Of a stretch of DNA of 47,997 nucleotides, positions 11,994-23,764 are shown one piece after another. Made by a program: the position numbers and the translations under genes. Below the pieces are notes generated by a model. That model was not told the origin of the DNA, made no database searches, and saw only the letters and a program-made list of their open reading frames with translations. Numbering within the stretch: position 1 is the first letter of the stretch; every line of letters begins with the position of its first letter. The stretch is taken from contig JAHJIX010000007.1 in assembly GCA_018823045.1 (NCBI GenBank), positions 1 through 47,997 on the forward strand. The letters are read 5' to 3'. The DNA is from Patescibacteria group bacterium (GTDB taxonomy: Bacteria > Patescibacteriota > Patescibacteriia > Magasanikbacterales > UBA922).

Positions 11994-14900
11994 ATGAGAT
12001 TTTTTCAAAGGGGTGTTATTATAATATTAAGTATATATTTGGCATGTTTTCAGACAATTGCGGTTTTTGCGCAGTCACCAGAAATAGAGGATAAGAATGA
12101 AGATTCATCATATATGTTTTATACAGACATAATGCATGAAATAGCAATAGTGAATGGTGCAGATGCTTCAGATGAAGAAAGAACGGTATTAGCTCAAAAA
12201 ATACAGCAATTTATTGATCAAGAAGAAAAAAAATTAGCAGAACTTCAAGTTTCTTCTAAAAAAGAATCTGAGTATATTACATTTTTAAAAAGGCAGATTG
12301 AAATGCTTGATTCTAATGAATTAGGTCTGTGGGATACTTTAAAATTTGGTATTCAAGATGTGTTTTCTAAAGATGAAAAGGTCTTGGGGGAGAGTGAAGG
12401 AATCTTTGATGTTGATATTCCCGAGAATCCTTCCACATTTAGTAAAGCAAATGCTTCTGAACAATACTTAGGAGATTTTTTATTAAAAAGAGATAAAGAC
12501 CCCTCAGATTTATTTGTGTATTCATATAAGAATGCACAAAAATATATACAATCTAATTTGCCAACTCTTGAAGATATTGCAGCAAGTGATGATGTTGTCA
12601 TTACATCAGATATTGAGAGTCTTGCTTTGCAATTGGAATATAATCCAGTAAATATTTTAAATTTTATTCAGGAACACATTGAATATGAACCATATTATGG
12701 TGCGAAGAAAGGTGCTGATGGTTGTTTAGCACAGAGAGTATGTAATGATATTGATGCTGCCACTTTAACAATAGCACTCTTGAGGGCTTCTGATATTCCA
12801 GCAAGATATAAAACAGGGATAATTCAATTATCAATGGAGCAACTAAAATCTCTTATAGGGGTTGAGACAGCCAAGGGAACATTTTTAGCATTTGTTGATA
12901 CGGATTTTCCTATATTTATAGATGAATCGATTGATGGTACCCTTCAAGAGATGACAGAAGAGCAAGCAGAAAGTATCTCATCTATTTTTTTAGAATGGAC
13001 TGTGGCAGAGGCTTTTTTTCCTCAAAATAGAACAGGAGGAAATATATCAAGTCCGTTTGATTTTGAATATGTAGAATCAGTAGATGATTTACTTGGAATT
13101 CTTGATGAAGAATATGGGATGGAATGGATTGATTTGGATGGTATATTTAAGGGAATGAATCATCATCAGGTAGAAATTGTTCCTGAAACTTCAGGATTTA
13201 TTGCTGATAATTTTTGGGAAGACTATTTTGCTTATCAGGGGGAGGAGTCACCTTTACAGCGAATGCGAAATATATTACTAGCTGATACAGGGAAAGATAT
13301 ATTTGATGATACATATCATTCTACTCTTGGTGTTTATGTTTCACCAGTGGATGTATTACCACCAACGGGTCCATATAATCGTATAGCCGATGGATCAAAT
13401 GGTGGAATAGTGTATACAACACGTTCACATTCAGTATTAGAAAGCAATCAAAAAGCACGGGTTGCTATTCGTTTATTTGATAAAGAAACAAGAAATATCG
13501 TATTTGGTCAAACATTTGATGCAGTCGAGATAGATAATATACCCATGGAGTTAACATATGTCGGAAAAACAGATACAGATAAAGCCATAATTGAATCATA
13601 TGGTGGTATTCATGCAACACCTGTGCATTTGGTAGAAATTGTACCTGTGTTAGATGTTGGAGGATATGAATATATTTTTGATACAAGTGTGTCTATTGGA
13701 CAAAATCTTATTTTAGAAACAGATTATATTTTGCATGGTACAAGTAAGCGCGCACATGAAAAGTTTTCTATTGCAGGAAATAATGAAGGAATATTTTTTG
13801 TATTTTCAGGGTTAGAGTTTCATCCAGTGTATGATAACGAAGAAGATGTTAATCGTCAGTCAAAAGTATTATTAGGAGGAAATGCTATTATCGCACGAGA
13901 ATATATAAAGAAAGAGTTACAAGATAGTGATATTTATGAAAAGGTTTTTGATGTTGATGATAACATTGAATTTAATCGTGCAGTTGTAACACAAAATCGG
14001 TTGTTAAATAGTATAGATGGTGTTCCAACGATATTTGATTTTAATGGATTAACCATTGATTCTATTACGTATTCAAATATTTATTCAAGAAGAACATATC
14101 AACCACAAAGTGAATATGATTATGGACAATTAACAACGCAAAATGCATCGTATTATGAAGCTGAAATATTTAAAAATGTCGCAGGATTAGAATCAATGGC
14201 AACGGTTCAAGGAATTCAGTATGCATATGCACATCCAGAAGAATATACTGTTCATAAAATTACTTCAGATAATATTGATGTTATTAATACACTTGAATTA
14301 TCAGCAAACACAAAAGCAAATTTACAGACAGAGATATCTAATGGTGCATATGCAATTGTTCCAAATAAATTAGTTGAACATGAAAATTGGCGAGGTGTTG
14401 TGTATATTACAGTAAAACCTGGTGTATATTGGAAATATGCAATTGGGGAGCAGGTGCAAAATGGAGGTTGGAGTATACAATTTCCTGATGATAAAATTGT
14501 TTTAGTGGACCCAGATGGAAATAGAATAGATCAATATCAATATACAGTCGAAAATGGACAATTTGCATTTACAGATGGAAATGCAAATACAAAAGATAAA
14601 ATGTGTCGTATTACTCATGATGATATTCAATTTGCTGCAGATCAGGGATTGCTGGGCGAGTATGGTCTCCTTTGTATGGTTGAGCGTCTTTATTTTGGTG
14701 ATCATGATCATACGCTTATTTTGGCAATGAATGCGGCGAAGTTTAAAAGTGTCAGTGATGGGTATGATTATTGGAAGCGGGAGAGTGATATTTTTGATGC
14801 TATTAGAGATCAACGACCTGCATCATATATTAACAGCAATGATATAAGTGTATATTGGGGAACTTATGCTTATAGTGGTGAATTATATCCAGGTACTTTA

Positions 14901-16385
14901 GGTGCAGAAAATAAAATTGATTCTATTATTATCTATAGTCCTAAGAAAGAAATGGCGTATAATATATATGAAAAGGACATTGCTCGTAAATATGTTTCTA
15001 AAAATACAATTTTAGGTAAACATATTCCTGAAAATTTAGGTTTTCCTATAGATGATATTATAAATGCTGATGAAACATATTCAGGAACAGATGGTTGGTA
15101 TATGAATTTTACAAACGGTCAATTATATTTAGAAAAAGAGTGGATAGATAATGTTTATGTGTTATTTGGTAAGATGTCTAATTTTTATAATGGAATAGAT
15201 AATGAAAGAAATGGACTTAGTGGTGTACAAGGAATTGTTGGTTTTCCTGAATCAGATTTAAAGTATTATTCTTCTAATCTTTATAAACAATCTTTTGAAG
15301 AAGCTGATATTGAATATAATATCCTTACAGAAAATATTAGGGTTGTACCTAGATCAGTGGAGGCTCGAAGATATCAAAATAAAGAATTTGCTCGAAAAAT
15401 GCTTAGAAAAGTTTGGGGAGGTAAAATTGTCAATAACAATAATGATCTTGATCGAAGTTTTGAAAATGAAATTATCACAGATGTAGAAGCTTTTGTTGAA
15501 ATTGTTGATTATATAGCTAATAAAGATGGTATAAGTACAGATGATTTTGTGAAGGATGTAACAGTAGTTTTTGCAGGAGCCGAGAAAATTAATATTTGGT
15601 ATGCTGCAGATTTATTAAATGGAAGGATAGAAAGTGATTATGATGTATATGGTTTCTCTGATACAGGTTTTAGACGTATGTATAGAGATAGTCAATATTG
15701 TGTTGACCCAAATTATGATTGTGTTTCGAATCAATTAAATCATTCAATGTTAGGTTTTAGTCAGGCATATTTTAAGAATAAGGAAAAAGCTGATAAAGAA
15801 ACTTTACGACATGATAAAAATCCTTCACCATTAGGTGTTAATAGCAAGAAAACAGGAGTTAGTTATGAAGATATTTGGTTAGGTATGCGAATTGCTATGT
15901 TTGGGGAATCTTTGAAAAATGGAACAAAGACAAAGGAAGAAATGGGCGAGTGGATTTTACAAAATCTTGCTTTATCTCCTAATATATCAAGTAGTGATTA
16001 CAATTCTTTAAGAGTACATAGAGACGATTATCTTATAACAAAATCATATAGAAAAAAATTCAGAGTATTAGAGTATCAATTTAATGGAAATAATCTATTT
16101 AAATGGGGATATACGGATGAAATGGAAAGATACATTTGTCCAAATGGTTCAGATGATTTTTATTATCAAAATTATGATTATTTTTTTGTAAATAGTGAAA
16201 ATGTTGGAGATGCTAAAGCTATTTGGGATGATAATAATAAAAAAATGGTGCTGCTCTATTGGGGACTAAAAGATGAGTATAATACAAATAATAAAATTTG
16301 TGGTAATCTAGAATCTTTATCTAATCAATATGGTATTACATTAAACTACACTTTTTTAGATATGATAAATGAAATTTTAGAATAA
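11994..16385 (+). CDS. Giant exported protein with a transglutaminase-like domain and LGFP-like repeats
   Basis: Signal peptide 'GVIIILSIYLACFQTIAVFAQ'; 'NPVNILNFIQEHIEYEPYYGAKKGADGCLAQRVCNDIDAATLTIALLRASDIPARYKTG...WIDLDGIFK' matches the transglutaminase-like layout of YD/Rhs-associated proteins; 'ENLGFPIDD', 'VQGIVGFPESD' are LGFP-like. Confidence 0.75.
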   Translation: MRFFQRGVIIILSIYLACFQTIAVFAQSPEIEDKNEDSSYMFYTDIMHEIAIVNGADASDEERTVLAQKIQQFIDQEEKKLAELQVSSKKESEYITFLKRQIEMLDSNELGLWDTLKFGIQDVFSKDEKVLGESEGIFDVDIPENPSTFSKANASEQYLGDFLLKRDKDPSDLFVYSYKNAQKYIQSNLPTLEDIAASDDVVITSDIESLALQLEYNPVNILNFIQEHIEYEPYYGAKKGADGCLAQRVCNDIDAATLTIALLRASDIPARYKTGIIQLSMEQLKSLIGVETAKGTFLAFVDTDFPIFIDESIDGTLQEMTEEQAESISSIFLEWTVAEAFFPQNRTGGNISSPFDFEYVESVDDLLGILDEEYGMEWIDLDGIFKGMNHHQVEIVPETSGFIADNFWEDYFAYQGEESPLQRMRNILLADTGKDIFDDTYHSTLGVYVSPVDVLPPTGPYNRIADGSNGGIVYTTRSHSVLESNQKARVAIRLFDKETRNIVFGQTFDAVEIDNIPMELTYVGKTDTDKAIIESYGGIHATPVHLVEIVPVLDVGGYEYIFDTSVSIGQNLILETDYILHGTSKRAHEKFSIAGNNEGIFFVFSGLEFHPVYDNEEDVNRQSKVLLGGNAIIAREYIKKELQDSDIYEKVFDVDDNIEFNRAVVTQNRLLNSIDGVPTIFDFNGLTIDSITYSNIYSRRTYQPQSEYDYGQLTTQNASYYEAEIFKNVAGLESMATVQGIQYAYAHPEEYTVHKITSDNIDVINTLELSANTKANLQTEISNGAYAIVPNKLVEHENWRGVVYITVKPGVYWKYAIGEQVQNGGWSIQFPDDKIVLVDPDGNRIDQYQYTVENGQFAFTDGNANTKDKMCRITHDDIQFAADQGLLGEYGLLCMVERLYFGDHDHTLILAMNAAKFKSVSDGYDYWKRESDIFDAIRDQRPASYINSNDISVYWGTYAYSGELYPGTLGAENKIDSIIIYSPKKEMAYNIYEKDIARKYVSKNTILGKHIPENLGFPIDDIINADETYSGTDGWYMNFTNGQLYLEKEWIDNVYVLFGKMSNFYNGIDNERNGLSGVQGIVGFPESDLKYYSSNLYKQSFEEADIEYNILTENIRVVPRSVEARRYQNKEFARKMLRKVWGGKIVNNNNDLDRSFENEIITDVEAFVEIVDYIANKDGISTDDFVKDVTVVFAGAEKINIWYAADLLNGRIESDYDVYGFSDTGFRRMYRDSQYCVDPNYDCVSNQLNHSMLGFSQAYFKNKEKADKETLRHDKNPSPLGVNSKKTGVSYEDIWLGMRIAMFGESLKNGTKTKEEMGEWILQNLALSPNISSSDYNSLRVHRDDYLITKSYRKKFRVLEYQFNGNNLFKWGYTDEMERYICPNGSDDFYYQNYDYFFVNSENVGDAKAIWDDNNKKMVLLYWGLKDEYNTNNKICGNLESLSNQYGITLNYTFLDMINEILE

Positions 16386-16389
16386 TTAT

Positions 16390-16740
16390 ATGAATAAGGT
16401 ATTAAAAATGGCAATAATAGTTTGCATAATTATAGGTTTAGTTATGGGATGTTATTTTACTTGGAGTTTTTATAATTATAAAAAAATATGCAAAAATCCT
16501 GATGAAATAGGTAATTTAGGAGAGGGATATCATAAACGTTGGGGAAATCTGTATAAGTATGAGCTTATCAATAATGATCCATGTATTTTTGATGGAGTTG
16601 AGCTTACTGGAATAGATATAGAAACATTTGAGATAATTGATAGACAATATTTTAGAGATAAAAATGGAGTATATATTTTTCATATTTATCCAGAACTGAT
16701 TTTTACCAAGTTGGATGAAGATATGAAAAATAACGAATAA
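16390..16740 (+). CDS. Small membrane-anchored protein with a DKNYY-like segment
   Basis: N-terminal TM MAIIVCIIIGLVMGCYFTW; 'ELTGIDIETFEIIDRQYFRDKNGVYIF'. Confidence 0.6.
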   Translation: MNKVLKMAIIVCIIIGLVMGCYFTWSFYNYKKICKNPDEIGNLGEGYHKRWGNLYKYELINNDPCIFDGVELTGIDIETFEIIDRQYFRDKNGVYIFHIYPELIFTKLDEDMKNNE

Positions 16741-16771
16741 TAAAAAAACGGCCAATAGATTTCATGAGTTA

Positions 16772-17272
16772 ATGGATGATGCAAGCCCTGCTGATTTAGA
16801 AAAGGTTGTAAATGATACATTGTTTACACAGCGATTAATAGAAGATGATGTATTTTATGAATTTAATAATAATTCACGGGATTTTGGACGATATAATCAT
16901 GAATTTAAAGGAGATGCTAGTGGTGGTTGGCATTATTTGCATACAGGAAGATCTGGAAATCGTATTACTAATAAGGTTGTGGGTAATAATGGAGTATATA
17001 AAGCAGATGTGGAGTATTATGATGAATTTGGTAATTTACATACAAAGTCAGATAATAGTTTTTTCCCAGATTCTTGGAGTGAAAAAGATGTATTGGAAGC
17101 TATTAATGATGCATATATTAATAGAGGTAATCCAATTAGCACTTCTCATCCTTTTAATAATGTGCATGAAGTTAATAGGGGTGGTATAGATATCCGGATT
17201 ATTGTCGAAAAAAATACAAATAGATTTGTTTCAGCATTTCCTATAAGAGATCCTGGTTTTAACGGTTTTTAA
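16772..17272 (+). CDS. EndoU-type nuclease toxin domain (polymorphic toxin module)
   Basis: 'YNHEFKGDASGGWHYLHTG' (two-His motif), 'SFFPDSWSEKDVLEAINDAY', 'GGIDIRIIVEKNTNRFVSAFPI' match the bacterial EndoU layout; no signal peptide. Confidence 0.75.
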   Translation: MDDASPADLEKVVNDTLFTQRLIEDDVFYEFNNNSRDFGRYNHEFKGDASGGWHYLHTGRSGNRITNKVVGNNGVYKADVEYYDEFGNLHTKSDNSFFPDSWSEKDVLEAINDAYINRGNPISTSHPFNNVHEVNRGGIDIRIIVEKNTNRFVSAFPIRDPGFNGF

Positions 17273-17273
17273 T

Positions 17274-17777
17274 ATGAAAATAATTATAAATAGACGTGTT
17301 TTCAATATGCAGCATATGCATGCTGAAGATATATATAAAAATGGGCTCTATTTTTTGCTAAGTGAGTGTTACAATACTCAAGATTTTTTAAATTTTCTTA
17401 ATGGAGAATTTAAAGAAAAATCAAGCTGGCTAGAAGATTTTGTTTTAGCAAAATTAGAGCATAAAAATGGAATAAAAAGATTATGTGTATATTGGTTGGA
17501 CGTGATAGGTGGAAAGCCTATAGAAAAGTTATCTACTTGTCTATCAATTGAAGAAGTTAAAATTCTCGTAACACACTATATACAAGAAAAAAATAAATTT
17601 ACAGATGATCCAGTGAAGTATAAATTAAATTTAATAAAACAAGGGGCCTTACTTATTACTACAGAAGATTATAAAGATAATCACGCCTTTGTAAAAGTTT
17701 TAGATGAAACAAAAAATAATATTGTAGTTGTAAATACAAAAGAAGAAAAGGAAAAATTATTAAATATGATACATTAA
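17274..17777 (+). CDS. Hypothetical protein, candidate cognate immunity for the EndoU-like toxin
   Basis: Starts 2 nt after the toxin stop; cytoplasmic, 167 aa; immunity role from position only. Confidence 0.5.
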   Translation: MKIIINRRVFNMQHMHAEDIYKNGLYFLLSECYNTQDFLNFLNGEFKEKSSWLEDFVLAKLEHKNGIKRLCVYWLDVIGGKPIEKLSTCLSIEEVKILVTHYIQEKNKFTDDPVKYKLNLIKQGALLITTEDYKDNHAFVKVLDETKNNIVVVNTKEEKEKLLNMIH

Positions 17778-17782
17778 ATGCT

Positions 17783-19684
17783 ATGAAAAATAGACAAAAA
17801 ATAATGTTGTTGAGTATGCTGTTATTGTTTACAACTGGTTGTTTTAGTGCTGCTACAGACAACTCTAGGGAATTATCGGTAGATACACTTGATGGACATT
17901 CTCAAGAAACTGCTATAGATGTAGAAGAAAATCAAGATGTTTTATTTGATGCTGAAATGAGTGAAGATAAAATTGAAACAGTAGAAGAATCTTGTCGGGA
18001 TGAATATAATTTTTCATCTGAGGATATTGATGCTTTTTATACAAAAACAATAAATAATCCAGGGCAACATGTATCTCTTGTACACATAAATTTTACATCA
18101 ACAAACGAGTCATTAGATCGTTTTATTATGGAATATAGTGTTTGTTTGAAGGAAGCAGAAAAACAAGATGGAGTTTCAAATCAAAATTTGCTTAGAATAA
18201 AAGCACAAGCCTTAATATTCAATTATAGAGCACTTGCTGAAAATACAGTGTTTAATCCAAAAATTTATAAAAATGATACACATGTATTTTATTTAGATCC
18301 AATGAGTAAATCATTTTATATATTTAATCACTTAGATCCGAAACAGTTTGAAGAAATACATAGTATCTCAGGAAAAGATTTTTATATTAAATTATTTGCT
18401 CATGGGAAAGAATTATATATATTTGATGGGGTAAAAATGAAGAAACATAATGGAGTAGATGCTAGTAGTTTGACAAGACATAATGATGGAACCGGTAATT
18501 ATAATCGCTCAGAACATTTTAAAGATGGTCAATCTGTATTTTATGTAGATACATCCGGTCATTTTAAAAAAATAGAAGGAGCTGATCCACAAACATTTAT
18601 AGAAAAATATACTAATTTTTTTGTAGACAAGGATACTGTATATTATTTTAATGGTGATTCGCGAGTATATCATAAAATTGAGGGTGCTGATCCACATAGT
18701 TTTTCAATCGATTGGGGGAGAAGCAATCCATTTATTGATACGCTACGATCAGATAGTCAATATGCGTATTATTACGATCATAAATTAGGTTCTTTTAGAA
18801 AAATAAATAAGCTTAATCTATCAGAGACTTATTTTTTGAGATGGAATGATGAAAAAACAAATTTAATTTCTTCAGAGGATGGTTATTTTTATATTACAGA
18901 TACTACTTCTCATCCTGTAAAAGTTGTAGATGTAAGTGATGGTGAACTGACGAGTGTCTATTATACTCGGTATGAGTCTCCTTTTTTTGTAAATAATAAT
19001 GGAGTATATTATTATGATTTTTTAAATACGCTTGTATTGAAAAAATTAGAGGATTTAGATAGAAATAGTTTTGAAATTATTGTTATGGCAGATGAGCATG
19101 CTCTTGTAAAAGATGCTTCTGGATTATATCAAGTACTCTTTGAAAATGGAGAATTTCATAAGATAGATACTATTGACAATTCTTCATTAGAAGTACTTGT
19201 TAATGATCACTATAATACAGTTATCAAAGATAAATCAGGAGTATATATAATAGATTCATCGGGAAAAATTCAACATAAGGATATTGAAGATGTTGCCAGT
19301 TTTAATGTGCTTGATACTCATTATAGATATATTATTGCCAAAGATAACAATGCTGTGTATATTGGTAAAAATAATATAGAAAAGATAGAGTATATAGATG
19401 TAGATAGTTTTGAATTCATAACATATAATTCTGTCATTGCATATGGAAAAGATAAGGATCATATTTATTATGTAACAAGAACATCTGATACTGTTTCTAT
19501 TTTGGAAGGTGCTTCCCCAAATTCATTTATGATTAAGGGTCCATTTTTATCATGGTTTTATTATGCAATTGATATTGATAGTGTTTGGTTTTACAACAAT
19601 AATGAAGATAGAGTTGAAAAAATAAATGGTGTTGATTCGCAAAGTTTTGATTTCAGTGCTCATGCACAATCGTTTTATTATTAG
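17783..19684 (+). CDS. Lipoprotein with multiple DKNYY-type repeats
   Basis: Lipobox LLFTTGC; repeated 'DKDTVYYFNGDSRVYHKIEGADPHSF', 'DKDHIYYV...ILEGASPNSF', 'VEKINGVDSQSF' units. Confidence 0.8.
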   Translation: MKNRQKIMLLSMLLLFTTGCFSAATDNSRELSVDTLDGHSQETAIDVEENQDVLFDAEMSEDKIETVEESCRDEYNFSSEDIDAFYTKTINNPGQHVSLVHINFTSTNESLDRFIMEYSVCLKEAEKQDGVSNQNLLRIKAQALIFNYRALAENTVFNPKIYKNDTHVFYLDPMSKSFYIFNHLDPKQFEEIHSISGKDFYIKLFAHGKELYIFDGVKMKKHNGVDASSLTRHNDGTGNYNRSEHFKDGQSVFYVDTSGHFKKIEGADPQTFIEKYTNFFVDKDTVYYFNGDSRVYHKIEGADPHSFSIDWGRSNPFIDTLRSDSQYAYYYDHKLGSFRKINKLNLSETYFLRWNDEKTNLISSEDGYFYITDTTSHPVKVVDVSDGELTSVYYTRYESPFFVNNNGVYYYDFLNTLVLKKLEDLDRNSFEIIVMADEHALVKDASGLYQVLFENGEFHKIDTIDNSSLEVLVNDHYNTVIKDKSGVYIIDSSGKIQHKDIEDVASFNVLDTHYRYIIAKDNNAVYIGKNNIEKIEYIDVDSFEFITYNSVIAYGKDKDHIYYVTRTSDTVSILEGASPNSFMIKGPFLSWFYYAIDIDSVWFYNNNEDRVEKINGVDSQSFDFSAHAQSFYY

Positions 19685-19708: not shown

Positions 19709-22700
19709 ATGCCCAAAAAAATATTCTCATCCATCATTATAATTATGATGTTGATCGTGCAACTGATTCCATTTGCACCAGTGTATTCTTATTCAGTTCC
19801 TGCAAAAGTAGGAAGTAGTGTAGAACCGTATACAAATGTTGCTTCCTCTGCGATTCCAGTATCAGAGCCTGTATCTGTATCCATAAAAGATACAGGGGCA
19901 CAAGATTTTACATTCAAAAAAACAAAGTCAACTTCAAATAAAGTTACAGTCAATCGTGTAGATCTCTATGAAGAATCAGAAAAAAACATACCGTTGAAAC
20001 AACAAAAAAATACAAGTAATTTTATTATTGAATATTATGATGAAATTGGAGATTATCCGATAGATTCAGCGTTATATTATATAAGTCAATCACAAAATGA
20101 TGACGGTAGTTTTGGTGATGTTAATACATTTAAATACACAACAGAAGTAATGGATATGCTTGCTGCACTTGGGCGAGGTGATAATCTACAGTATCAAGAT
20201 GCATTAACATATGTTTTAAATACAGAACCAAAAGATAATATTGATATCGCAAGAAAAGCAAGAATACAAAAAGAACATGGTCAACAAGAAGAAGTATATT
20301 TAGGAACGTTAGCTCTGTTAGATGATGATATTAATGCAGATGGTGGTTACGGGTTTAAAGAAAACCATGCTAGTGATATTATGACAAGTTTGGAGGTATT
20401 TAATGCAAGCATGAGAATTGGAACAATAAATACAAAAGTATTTCAATATGTTGATAATCAGATTCCTAGTTCAGGTAATTTTTCTGGAACAACATTTGGT
20501 AGTGTGCCAACGTATACTGATTTAGTTCAAGCAATTATGTTATTAAAGCCATTTAAAGATCTTATTGTTCAATATACATATACAAGTGGAGAAGAAAGAC
20601 AGGTGGCAATTCAAGAAAAGATTAATATATTATTGGCAGAATTACAGAATAGATATAGTGAACAAGAAGGATTTATGTCTGGTAATCCTTCTTTATTAGA
20701 TTTAGCACAAATTATATATGTATTTGAAGAAATGGGAGTGCTTCCCGATGTGCTAGATGAATGGCGTTTATATATTGAACAAGCACAACGATTTGATGGA
20801 AGTATACTTGGAAAATCATGGGAGACGTTGTATGCATGTTATGCACTCCGACAAACAGATCTTATTGTGAGAAATATAGGGACATTAGGTGATGTGCAAA
20901 CGCGTGGAGAGATGAGTATCACATTTGAGTTGAAGAATTATGGTTTTAAAACAATAGATGATGCACATATACGTTTTTTCTTTGATGGGTATAATCCTAA
21001 TTATACATTTTCTTTTACAGATCAAGATTTTGTGATGCCACCAGGTTCTGTTGCACAGGTAGAAATTGCATTGAGTGCACAACAAACGGGTATGTTTTTA
21101 GGAGACACAAAAGTACAATTATTTGCAGATGTTGCATATGATAGAAATTATGATAATAATTGGGTATCTCAAGTCATTCACTTTGTCGCAAATACAAATG
21201 GTGAGCCAGCATTACCATTATATTCGGTTGCATATAAATCAGATGTAGATATTGATGGATTGGTGACTGCACAATTTATTTGGGAAGAACGAGAAGATGC
21301 AAACAGAGGAGGGTATGTACTGCTTTATCGTACACCAGGAGCAACAGATTGGGGGTATATTGTGTTAGGGCAAGATGTTGTAGATTCTGCCGCACTAAAA
21401 GGTTTCCCAGAAGATAGTACATATGAATTAGCGGTGTCTGTGCATGATGGATCGTCTATTTATCTGCCAGTAACATACGATACCGTTACGTTAAGCACGG
21501 ATGATAGCCTTTATAAAGGGGGAATGAGTGGACAAATATTAATCGATGGAGAATATCCTTCAGATATACAAATTGGTGGATATATATATGGGACTACTTC
21601 TCAGGAAGATGGGCAGTATAGTATTTCAAATTTACCAAATGGGGGAAATATTGCAACAGTATTTACACCAGAATATGAACCAATTTATACCAAATATCAA
21701 ATCGAGTCCAATAATATAACAGAAAATGTATTATTGTACAGTCATTTAAAAGAAGATGCGATAAGACCAGAAGTAAATAGTATAGATATTTCATTAATAG
21801 ATGGACAAGTATATACGAATACTTCAGTAAACATTGATATAACAGGAAGTGATAATATTGCCATTGATTATTTTGACTTATATTATTTTGATCCTATTGA
21901 ATCATACTGGGCATATATGGGGAGTCAAGATGCTGAAACAAATACAACAACATTTAGTTGGTATGTTTCTGAATCTATTGTTGGGAGTGGGTATAAGATA
22001 AAGGCGCATGCTGTAGATTATCGTGGGAATATTTCTGAGAGTCTTGAATCGGTCGTATTTGATATTGTTAATCAACCATTAGGAAGTGTACAAGGAATTA
22101 ACGTAGAGAGTGTTAATAATGGTGTATTAGTTACATGGAATAGTACAGTGATTCCAAACAATTTTGTTGGGTATAATGTATATAAAAGTCCTTCTGAAGT
22201 CGATATTACAACGCTGGAACCAATTGCCACTGTATTTGATGCACAACGGGATTATTTTAGAGATGTCACTGAAGGAAGTCAGGGGTATTATTATACCGTC
22301 ATATTTTTAAATGATGAAGGAGAAGAAAGTGCTGAATATACCTGGGTTGGTCCTGTTATTCCAGGTGCAAAGATTATAAATATCGTTGGTGATGGAGATA
22401 TGGAACAAGAAGAAAATACTTGGAGGCGTTGGGGTATGCCAATAAGTTGGGATAAAACAATTGATGATAGTTATAGTGGTGTCTATTCGACGTATTTGAA
22501 TGCACAAGAAGGACATGCTGGGATTCAGCAATTAGATATTCCTGTAGAAGCTGGAAAATCATATATATTTTCTTTTAGATATAAACATGATGCAGGAGAA
22601 GTGTATCCAATACTTGGAATACAAAATTCAAATGGAGATTTTGAACAGAGAAGAGATGTATTAACAAGTACCGGAGATTCTTGGGGGTATTATGAACGTA

Positions 22701-23764
22701 AATTTATTGTTCCAAGTGATTTTGTTGAAGATTTTCGTGTGCGTATTAGTGTATTATATGGTCAGGTACATATTGATGATATTGTAATTACAGAAGTTGA
22801 ATCTTTGCCAATTATTCGAGATGGTGATTTTGAATTAGATACTCTTGATTCTTGGAAGGGTTGGGGAGGAAATACAAATTGGAAAAAGGTCACAAGTACT
22901 GTATCTTCTGGTATTCAAGCGCTTCAAATAGGTTCTGCGGATAGAGTTGGTGGTGGAGTAACGCAAAATTATATTCCATTTGAACTAGGGCATAATTATG
23001 ATTGTTCATTTGATTATAATGTGGTTAATGGCGTGTTATATAATACTATTGGTGATTCAAGTGCTAATAGAGATATAGAAGGATTGTCGATATATTTTAG
23101 AAATACACAAGGAGAATGGAGGACATATCATAGAACTATTTCTGGTGATGTGTTTCAAACGGCCAATTCAATTATGAGATTTAGTACTAGAAATGGAATG
23201 GCATATATTGATAATGTGAGTTGCACGGTTATTGATGAGCAATATTTGATTTTTGATGCTAATATGGAAGAAAATGGATTAGCAAGTTGGGAGAATTATG
23301 CAAACTCATTAACAATAGAAAAAGTGACAGATGATATACATGAAGGTGAACAGGCACTTCATGTGGTAACGGAATTTAGTGACTCATATATTTTGGGTGG
23401 TATACAATATAGAAATATTTCTGTTGAAGCTGGAAAAACATATACGGTATCATTTTTCTATAAGACAAATGGTTCTATTGTGCCACGTCTTGGTATAAAT
23501 ACTTCTAATGATGATTTTGAATTAAGTGAAATGAATATTCCTGAGTTACAGGCAAATGCAGAATGGCAAGAATATAGCAGAACATTTACTGTTCCAGAAG
23601 ACTTTGACGGAGATTTTCGTTTTGTGCTTCGTTTACAAAATTGGTATATTGACGGAACAGAACAAATAGAATATGAAGGGCAATTCTATGAAGCACCACA
23701 TCATGAATTTGTAGGTAACGGAGAGATGTGGATTGATAATGTTGATTTAGTAGAAGTATTGTAG
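19709..23764 (+). CDS. Large multi-domain surface protein (prenyltransferase/cyclase-like repeats, CARDB-like, carboxypeptidase-regulatory-like, FN3, three carbohydrate-binding-like modules)
   Basis: Signal peptide; 'YYISQSQNDDGSFGD' repeats; 'SGQILIDGEYPSDIQIGGYIYGTTSQEDGQYSISNLPNG'; FN3 'SVQGINVESVNNGVLVTWNST...YNVYKS'; three 'GDGDME.../RDGDFE.../FDANMEENG' modules ending 'IDDIVI/IDNVSC/IDNVDL'. Confidence 0.75.
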   Translation: MPKKIFSSIIIIMMLIVQLIPFAPVYSYSVPAKVGSSVEPYTNVASSAIPVSEPVSVSIKDTGAQDFTFKKTKSTSNKVTVNRVDLYEESEKNIPLKQQKNTSNFIIEYYDEIGDYPIDSALYYISQSQNDDGSFGDVNTFKYTTEVMDMLAALGRGDNLQYQDALTYVLNTEPKDNIDIARKARIQKEHGQQEEVYLGTLALLDDDINADGGYGFKENHASDIMTSLEVFNASMRIGTINTKVFQYVDNQIPSSGNFSGTTFGSVPTYTDLVQAIMLLKPFKDLIVQYTYTSGEERQVAIQEKINILLAELQNRYSEQEGFMSGNPSLLDLAQIIYVFEEMGVLPDVLDEWRLYIEQAQRFDGSILGKSWETLYACYALRQTDLIVRNIGTLGDVQTRGEMSITFELKNYGFKTIDDAHIRFFFDGYNPNYTFSFTDQDFVMPPGSVAQVEIALSAQQTGMFLGDTKVQLFADVAYDRNYDNNWVSQVIHFVANTNGEPALPLYSVAYKSDVDIDGLVTAQFIWEEREDANRGGYVLLYRTPGATDWGYIVLGQDVVDSAALKGFPEDSTYELAVSVHDGSSIYLPVTYDTVTLSTDDSLYKGGMSGQILIDGEYPSDIQIGGYIYGTTSQEDGQYSISNLPNGGNIATVFTPEYEPIYTKYQIESNNITENVLLYSHLKEDAIRPEVNSIDISLIDGQVYTNTSVNIDITGSDNIAIDYFDLYYFDPIESYWAYMGSQDAETNTTTFSWYVSESIVGSGYKIKAHAVDYRGNISESLESVVFDIVNQPLGSVQGINVESVNNGVLVTWNSTVIPNNFVGYNVYKSPSEVDITTLEPIATVFDAQRDYFRDVTEGSQGYYYTVIFLNDEGEESAEYTWVGPVIPGAKIINIVGDGDMEQEENTWRRWGMPISWDKTIDDSYSGVYSTYLNAQEGHAGIQQLDIPVEAGKSYIFSFRYKHDAGEVYPILGIQNSNGDFEQRRDVLTSTGDSWGYYERKFIVPSDFVEDFRVRISVLYGQVHIDDIVITEVESLPIIRDGDFELDTLDSWKGWGGNTNWKKVTSTVSSGIQALQIGSADRVGGGVTQNYIPFELGHNYDCSFDYNVVNGVLYNTIGDSSANRDIEGLSIYFRNTQGEWRTYHRTISGDVFQTANSIMRFSTRNGMAYIDNVSCTVIDEQYLIFDANMEENGLASWENYANSLTIEKVTDDIHEGEQALHVVTEFSDSYILGGIQYRNISVEAGKTYTVSFFYKTNGSIVPRLGINTSNDDFELSEMNIPELQANAEWQEYSRTFTVPEDFDGDFRFVLRLQNWYIDGTEQIEYEGQFYEAPHHEFVGNGEMWIDNVDLVEVL

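What the first reader, a model, noticed from the sequence alone, without database searches (positions are those of the whole stretch)
16754..17777. EndoU-type toxin with adjacent immunity candidate
Seen: the 166-aa ORF has 'NHEFKGDASGGWHYLHTG', 'FFPDSWSEKDVLEAI' and a C-terminal 'DIRIIV...SAFPI', the layout of bacterial EndoU toxin domains (CdiA-CT/polymorphic toxins). A 167-aa ORF starts 2 nt after its stop. The toxin ORF has no signal peptide, and its frame extends upstream without an ATG ('KITNNKKTANRFHEL-M'), as expected for an orphan C-terminal toxin module cut from a larger carrier. Inference: an antagonism module, noteworthy in a reduced, probably episymbiotic lineage.
Basis: partly seen in the sequence, partly recalled or inferred. 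Interest (0 to 1): 0.8.

Follow-up and report, generated by a model that had tools for sequence, protein, structure and literature searches.

The report
Displaced EndoU toxin with its immunity gene
A tiny-genome bacterium related to Magasanikbacteria keeps, just behind a large secreted carrier protein, a cut-off RNA-cutting toxin tip (EndoU) and its probable antidote gene, which in two relatives is still the tip of that carrier; it suggests that these reduced bacteria swap toxin tips as larger bacteria do.

Summary
ORF 16772-17272 is an EndoU nuclease (Pfam PF14436, 61 bits against a 25.3 cut-off), the only one in its 1.16-Mb genome, and the 167-aa ORF starts one base after its stop. In two relatives in the same family the same EndoU domain (47% identical in one) is still the C-terminal tip of a large secreted carrier. 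That carrier is homologous to the 1463-aa ORF 11994-16385 immediately upstream in this window. Each relative's EndoU is followed by a short gene related to the 167-aa ORF (shuffle z = 9.0 and 4.5; unrelated immunity candidates from sister loci about 0). Here the carrier bears a different tip and a different downstream gene (116 aa, DKNYY-like), so the EndoU pair is a displaced, orphan toxin/immunity cassette. The carriers (11 aligned; Magasanik-, Komeili-, Uhr- and Peregrinibacteria) share a constant core with swapped tips. They carry the transglutaminase-like domain known from RHS toxins but no detectable RHS repeats, and sit beside a conserved partner protein. The cassette is a new member of a known kind; the carrier looks like an undescribed variant. 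Toxicity, binding and delivery are untested; the catalytic lysine is only tentatively placed.

The parts
11994..16385 (+). Carrier (1463 aa): signal peptide, transglutaminase-like domain (aa 218-278), conserved core and LGFP-like repeat region to about aa 1115, then a variable C-terminal tip
   Evidence: core homologous to carriers of relatives (30-38% identical); conservation stops after the LGFP-like region; signal peptide read by eye
15340..16385 (+). Present-day variable C-terminal tip of the carrier, without recognisable family (putative toxin that replaced EndoU; boundary approximate)
   Evidence: alignment, (no credible Pfam family; no match to other tips)
16390..16740 (+). 116-aa ORF with a TM segment and a DKNYY-like stretch; candidate immunity gene of the present carrier tip
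   Evidence: position directly after the carrier stop
16733..16771 (+). Remnant of the carrier pre-toxin segment, open in the EndoU frame but without an ATG
   Evidence: alignment with the G031 carrier begins here, about 12 codons before the ATG
16772..17272 (+). Orphan EndoU toxin ORF (166 aa); EndoU domain 16895-17245; His43 (16898-16900), His54 (16931-16933), tentative Lys92 (17045-17047), FFP motif, C-terminal SAFPI
17274..17777 (+). Cognate immunity candidate (167 aa); aa 34-125 homologous to the gene after the EndoU tip in G031, aa 95-120 to that in G003; aa 126-167 extra
17783..19684 (+). 633-aa lipoprotein-like ORF with DKNYY-type repeats (DKNYY match 19151-19585); role in the locus uncertain
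   Evidence: lipobox read by eye
19709..23764 (+). Conserved partner: large secreted protein with carbohydrate-binding domains and weak terpenoid-cyclase-like repeats; a homologue neighbours the carrier in every locus checked

Best explanation
This is a displaced (orphan) toxin/immunity cassette of a polymorphic toxin system. The ancestral locus encoded a secreted carrier ending in an EndoU RNase tip, followed by its immunity gene, as in relatives G031 and G003 today. A recombination replaced the carrier's 3' end with a new tip and its own downstream gene (116 aa), leaving the old EndoU tip and its immunity gene downstream without a carrier or signal peptide. Inferred function: in carrier-borne form the EndoU tip is exported, delivered to a neighbouring cell, and cleaves RNA there, most likely tRNA as characterised bacterial EndoU toxins do; the 167-aa protein binds EndoU and blocks it. 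As an orphan the toxin is not exported. The immunity gene still protects against kin carrying EndoU tips, and the cassette can be recombined back onto a carrier. Shown: family, homologies, gene order, tip swapping among relatives. Inferred: recombination history, activity, binding, delivery, target.
For: EndoU Pfam match. Same EndoU as the C-terminal tip of about 1550-aa and >1350-aa carriers in G031 and G003, each followed at once by a 132/143-aa gene. Carrier cores homologous to window ORF 11994-16385. 47% identity to the G031 tip, starting about 12 codons before the ATG. Immunity homology specific to EndoU loci: z = 9.0 and 4.5 against -1.1 to 0.9 for decoys. Tip swapping: L005 (EndoU) and L012 (other tip) are 47% identical over 174 aa of pre-toxin region and diverge at the start of EndoU. 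Histidines invariant in 7/7. The review PMC9086364 describes orphan CdiA-CT/CdiI modules downstream of cdi loci whose toxin part lacks a start codon.
Against: The orphan has an in-frame ATG, so it could be translated in the cytoplasm. Only three EndoU/immunity examples exist in this family. Window immunity homology to G003 rests on about 26 residues, and there is none measurable directly to the Bacillota EndoU immunities. The structure models are low confidence (pLDDT 67.5 and 63.3). The catalytic Lys cannot be aligned with certainty. No component of a delivery route was identified.
Confidence: 0.85

Rival explanations
1. A self-contained intracellular toxin-antitoxin pair: EndoU is translated from ATG 16772 and the 167-aa protein is its antitoxin, acting in stress or phage defence rather than against neighbours.
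For: Intact ORF with an ATG; toxin and partner one base apart; gene starts in this window generally lack Shine-Dalgarno motifs, so absence here is uninformative.
Against: Both relatives carry the domain fused to a secreted carrier; the homology runs upstream of the ATG; toxin-then-immunity order is usual for exported polymorphic toxins (PMC3482391).
Confidence: 0.08
2. A decaying remnant: the EndoU part is no longer made or active, and only the immunity gene is under selection. This is a later stage of the best explanation rather than an exclusive alternative.
For: Only a short piece of pre-toxin sequence survives before the ATG; [quoted passage not shown]
Against: 181 open codons at about 28% GC with both histidines, the FFP motif and the C-terminal motif kept.
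Confidence: 0.25
3. A housekeeping EndoU-like RNase unrelated to antagonism.
For: EndoU domains serve RNA processing in eukaryotes (general knowledge).
Against: Rare: 3 of 380 genomes sampled across the phylum, own included, and 3 of 59 near relatives, own included; carrier-borne in both near relatives that have it; the nearest named relatives are LXG polymorphic toxins and EndoU-domain proteins.
Confidence: 0.02

Closest known systems
Orphan CdiA-CT/CdiI modules downstream of cdi loci (Poole et al. 2011, as reviewed in PMC9086364)
   Same: Displaced toxin tip plus immunity gene behind a carrier that now bears another tip; toxin part begins in carrier-derived sequence without its own export signal
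   Different: The carrier is not a CdiA two-partner secretion protein (no haemagglutinin-type domains found); the orphan has a usable internal ATG
EndoU toxins of LXG/T7SS carriers (Priestia, Listeria innocua) with downstream immunity gene
   Same: EndoU tip 33-36% identical to the G031 tip; the G031 immunity protein is related to the Priestia koreensis and Listeria ones (z 6.3 and 6.9)
   Different: LXG carrier and type VII export there; an unrelated carrier with a signal peptide here
RHS polymorphic toxins with an inactive N-terminal transglutaminase domain (Zhang et al. 2012, PMC3482391)
   Same: Signal peptide followed by a transglutaminase-like domain that seems to lack the usual catalytic Cys; aa 193-557 align with the Spartinivicinus RHS toxin (E = 3e-17)
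   Different: No RHS repeats found by Pfam; LGFP-like repeats instead, and a shorter protein
CdiA-CT of E. coli STEC O31 (PDB 5HKQ)
   Same: EndoU-type CDI toxin; top Foldseek hit of the weak model
   Different: No significant sequence similarity in the PDB searches; its tRNA specificity cannot be carried over

Membership tests
Bacterial EndoU nuclease (PF14436) | Profile match over the curated cut-off | tested here: met
   61.2 bits vs 25.3
Bacterial EndoU nuclease (PF14436) | Two catalytic histidines | tested here: met
   His43 and His54 invariant in 7 sequences
Bacterial EndoU nuclease (PF14436) | Catalytic lysine near the S/T-FFP motif | tested here: inconclusive
   Lys92 lies nearby but with a length change; the residue next to the S/T is Asn
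Bacterial EndoU nuclease (PF14436) | EndoU fold | tested here: inconclusive
   pLDDT 67.5; best hit 5HKQ at E = 0.039, probability 0.57, with XendoU and Nsp15 among the top 50, none significant
Polymorphic toxin system | Constant secreted carrier with exchangeable C-terminal toxin domains | tested here: met
Polymorphic toxin system | Immunity gene directly downstream, specific to the toxin type | tested here: met
   (by homology and position; function untested)
Orphan toxin/immunity cassette | Toxin module homologous to carrier tips, downstream of a carrier, without export signal | tested here: met
Orphan toxin/immunity cassette | Toxic when expressed and neutralised by the immunity protein | not testable with these tools
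   Needs experiment
RHS toxin | RHS/YD repeats | tested here: not met
   No RHS family in Pfam scans of the carrier or of the other carriers' C-terminal parts
CdiA/CdiB two-partner CDI system | CdiA-type carrier (TPS domain, FHA repeats) | tested here: not met
   Pfam scan of the carrier shows only the transglutaminase-like domain above cut-off; cdiB was not searched for genome-wide

The most novel reading that the evidence does not exclude
Several Patescibacteria lineages carry their own family of exchangeable toxin carriers, with a transglutaminase-like head, no RHS shell, and a conserved secreted partner protein, used for antagonism against kin or competing epibionts; the EndoU pair records a tip replacement in it.
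Probability: 0.6. Interest if true: 0.68.

Novelty: new variant of a known kind. Interest (0 to 1): 0.52.

Why it matters
Polymorphic toxins arm bacteria against kin and competitors. I found no paper in the searched open-access library on such carriers in Patescibacteria, although that library lacks most subscription journals. A reduced genome of about 1.2 Mb that spends roughly 12 kb on a carrier, two tip/immunity sets and a partner protein suggests that kin or niche competition matters to these cells. The three EndoU/immunity pairs give a directly testable set, including cross-immunity, in an ordinary laboratory E. coli host.

Tried and rejected
Sequence searches of the PDB with the EndoU alignment and single sequences gave no credible hit. 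The viral-contig scans for EndoU and for the immunity ORF found no relative; tblastn of both window proteins against plasmids was empty, and plasmid relatives were reached only with the G031 tip. A phylum-wide search with the immunity alignment gave only marginal hits, which I do not trust. The immunity model gave no informative fold match. Direct homology of the window immunity ORF to the Bacillota EndoU immunities was tested and is not significant (z 1.5 or less); the link runs only through G031. Fusion of EndoU to the upstream carrier by frameshift was rejected, because a separate 116-aa ORF lies between. A pairing of the partner protein with proteobacterial RHS toxins was seen once among three annotated plasmid loci, with only weak similarity, and is not claimed.

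Full report
What is there. The EndoU frame is open for 15 further codons upstream without an ATG. PF14436 matches residues 42-158 at E = 1.7e-16, 61 bits against a cut-off of 25.3. It is the only EndoU in the 1.16-Mb, 24-contig genome.

Which organism. Four same-family genomes with carriers (G031, G030, G027, G003) have contigs whose lengths equal those of records titled Candidatus Magasanikbacteria (45949, 78111, 83849 and 15620 bases), so the window most likely belongs to that group of Patescibacteria. The episymbiotic lifestyle is inferred from lineage and genome size, not tested.

EndoU is still a carrier tip in relatives. Of 59 genomes searched, the only others with the domain are G031 and G003, and there it ends open frames of 1573 and 1350 codons. 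These are carriers homologous to the window's 1463-aa ORF 11994-16385 (with a profile built from these three, each scores above 1600 bits and two more family members above 1000). The orphan matches the G031 tip at 47% identity over 169 positions, and the match starts about 12 codons before the orphan's ATG. With the first 60 residues of the extended frame as query, only the two EndoU carriers match (E 1e-11 and 3e-5). So the orphan retains a piece of carrier pre-toxin sequence, part of it now probably untranslated.

The tips are exchanged. Eleven carriers were aligned. The core is conserved up to an LGFP-like region, after which the sequences diverge. L005 (EndoU tip) and L012 (another tip) are 47% identical over 174 aa of pre-toxin region, and the similarity ends where EndoU begins. 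Other tips include a phosphodiester glycosidase (NAGPA, L013) and several without a Pfam family. In the loci examined, a short ORF follows the carrier directly. In the window the carrier's present tip has no credible family and is followed by a 116-aa ORF with a DKNYY-like stretch. DKNYY matches in this genome occur only in this locus, in the 116-aa and 633-aa ORFs, and a clear DKNYY protein directly follows the Komeilibacteria carrier.

The immunity candidate. The 167-aa ORF has no Pfam or NCBIfam match. It is homologous to the gene after the EndoU tip in G031 (BLAST E 2e-5 for the single comparison, aa 34-125) and, over a shorter stretch, in G003 (3e-5, 26 aa). With 300 shuffles the z-scores are 9.0 and 4.5, whereas immunity candidates from sister loci with other tips score -1.1 to 0.9. 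The G031 immunity protein is in turn related to the immunity candidates next to EndoU in Priestia koreensis and Listeria innocua (z 6.3 and 6.9). So the immunity type travels with EndoU. Toxins are 47% identical while immunities are 25% identical between the window and G031.

Active site. Aligned with the two patescibacterial tips and four plasmid-borne toxins found by tblastn, His43 and His54 are invariant, as are the FFP motif and the final Pro of the C-terminal motif. Position 96 is Ser where the others have Thr. A lysine lies a few residues before FFP in all of them, but at variable distance; Lys92 is the window's candidate. The STEC O31 EndoU toxin uses H187, H204, K261 and T262 (PMC9086364). 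The AlphaFold model is weak (pLDDT 67.5). Its best PDB hit among 350,542 chains is nonetheless 5HKQ, the EndoU CDI toxin, with XendoU and Nsp15 in the top 50; none is significant alone.

The carrier. It has a signal peptide, then a transglutaminase-like domain in which the Cys of the usual motif is not at the expected position (CNDIDAAT; by eye). aa 193-557 align with a Spartinivicinus RHS toxin (24%, E = 3e-17), and shorter stretches with Burkholderia, Methylomonas and other RHS proteins. Zhang et al. described inactive transglutaminase domains after the signal peptide of RHS toxins (PMC3482391). No RHS repeat is detected here, so this is not an RHS toxin by definition. Carrier distribution is patchy: 5 of 46 family genomes and 2 of 380 phylum-wide, own genome included; named loci come from Magasanik-, Komeili-, Uhr- and Peregrinibacteria. 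A large secreted partner protein, homologous to window ORF 19709-23764, lies next to or near the carrier in all eight loci checked.

Interpretation. The most economical history is replacement of the carrier's 3' end by a new tip with its own downstream gene, leaving the old EndoU tip and immunity gene as an orphan cassette, as known for CDI loci and other polymorphic toxins (PMC9086364; PMC3482391). Shown: homology, order, specificity of the immunity type, tip exchange. Inferred: direction of the replacement, RNase activity (tRNA most likely), neutralisation, delivery, and the benefit (protection against kin with EndoU tips, and a reservoir for reassembly).

Novelty. The cassette is a new member of a known kind. 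The carrier family with its partner is, as far as I could search, undescribed in Patescibacteria, and I rate it a new variant.

Noticed in passing
window 19709-23764 and homologues in L005, L012, L013, L016, L020, L023, L024: A large secreted protein with weak terpenoid-cyclase-like repeats and varied carbohydrate-binding/LamG ends neighbours the carrier in all eight loci checked (downstream in seven, upstream in L023): a likely partner of the carrier.
   Followed up: partly
window 16390-16740 and 17783-19684; L016 7885-8544; L020 12450-14564: DKNYY-type repeat proteins flank the EndoU cassette, occur nowhere else in this genome, and follow carriers in Komeili- and Uhrbacteria; possibly an immunity or surface-protein type of these loci.
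   Followed up: partly
L027 (G097) 38-2969: In another patescibacterial family two modules share a 62% identical pre-toxin segment but end in different tips, one EndoU-like: another apparent tandem orphan cassette.
   Followed up: no
L013 5584-6771: One carrier ends in a phosphodiester glycosidase (NAGPA) at the toxin position, followed by a multi-TM protein, which suggests a cell-surface target rather than RNA.
   Followed up: no
window gene starts, e.g. 11994, 16772, 19709, 25287, 34977: The gene starts inspected show hardly any Shine-Dalgarno-like sequence.
   Followed up: no
window 17652-17774 (aa 127-167 of the 167-aa ORF): C-terminal extension of about 40 aa absent from the related immunity proteins; low confidence in the model; origin unknown.
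   Followed up: no
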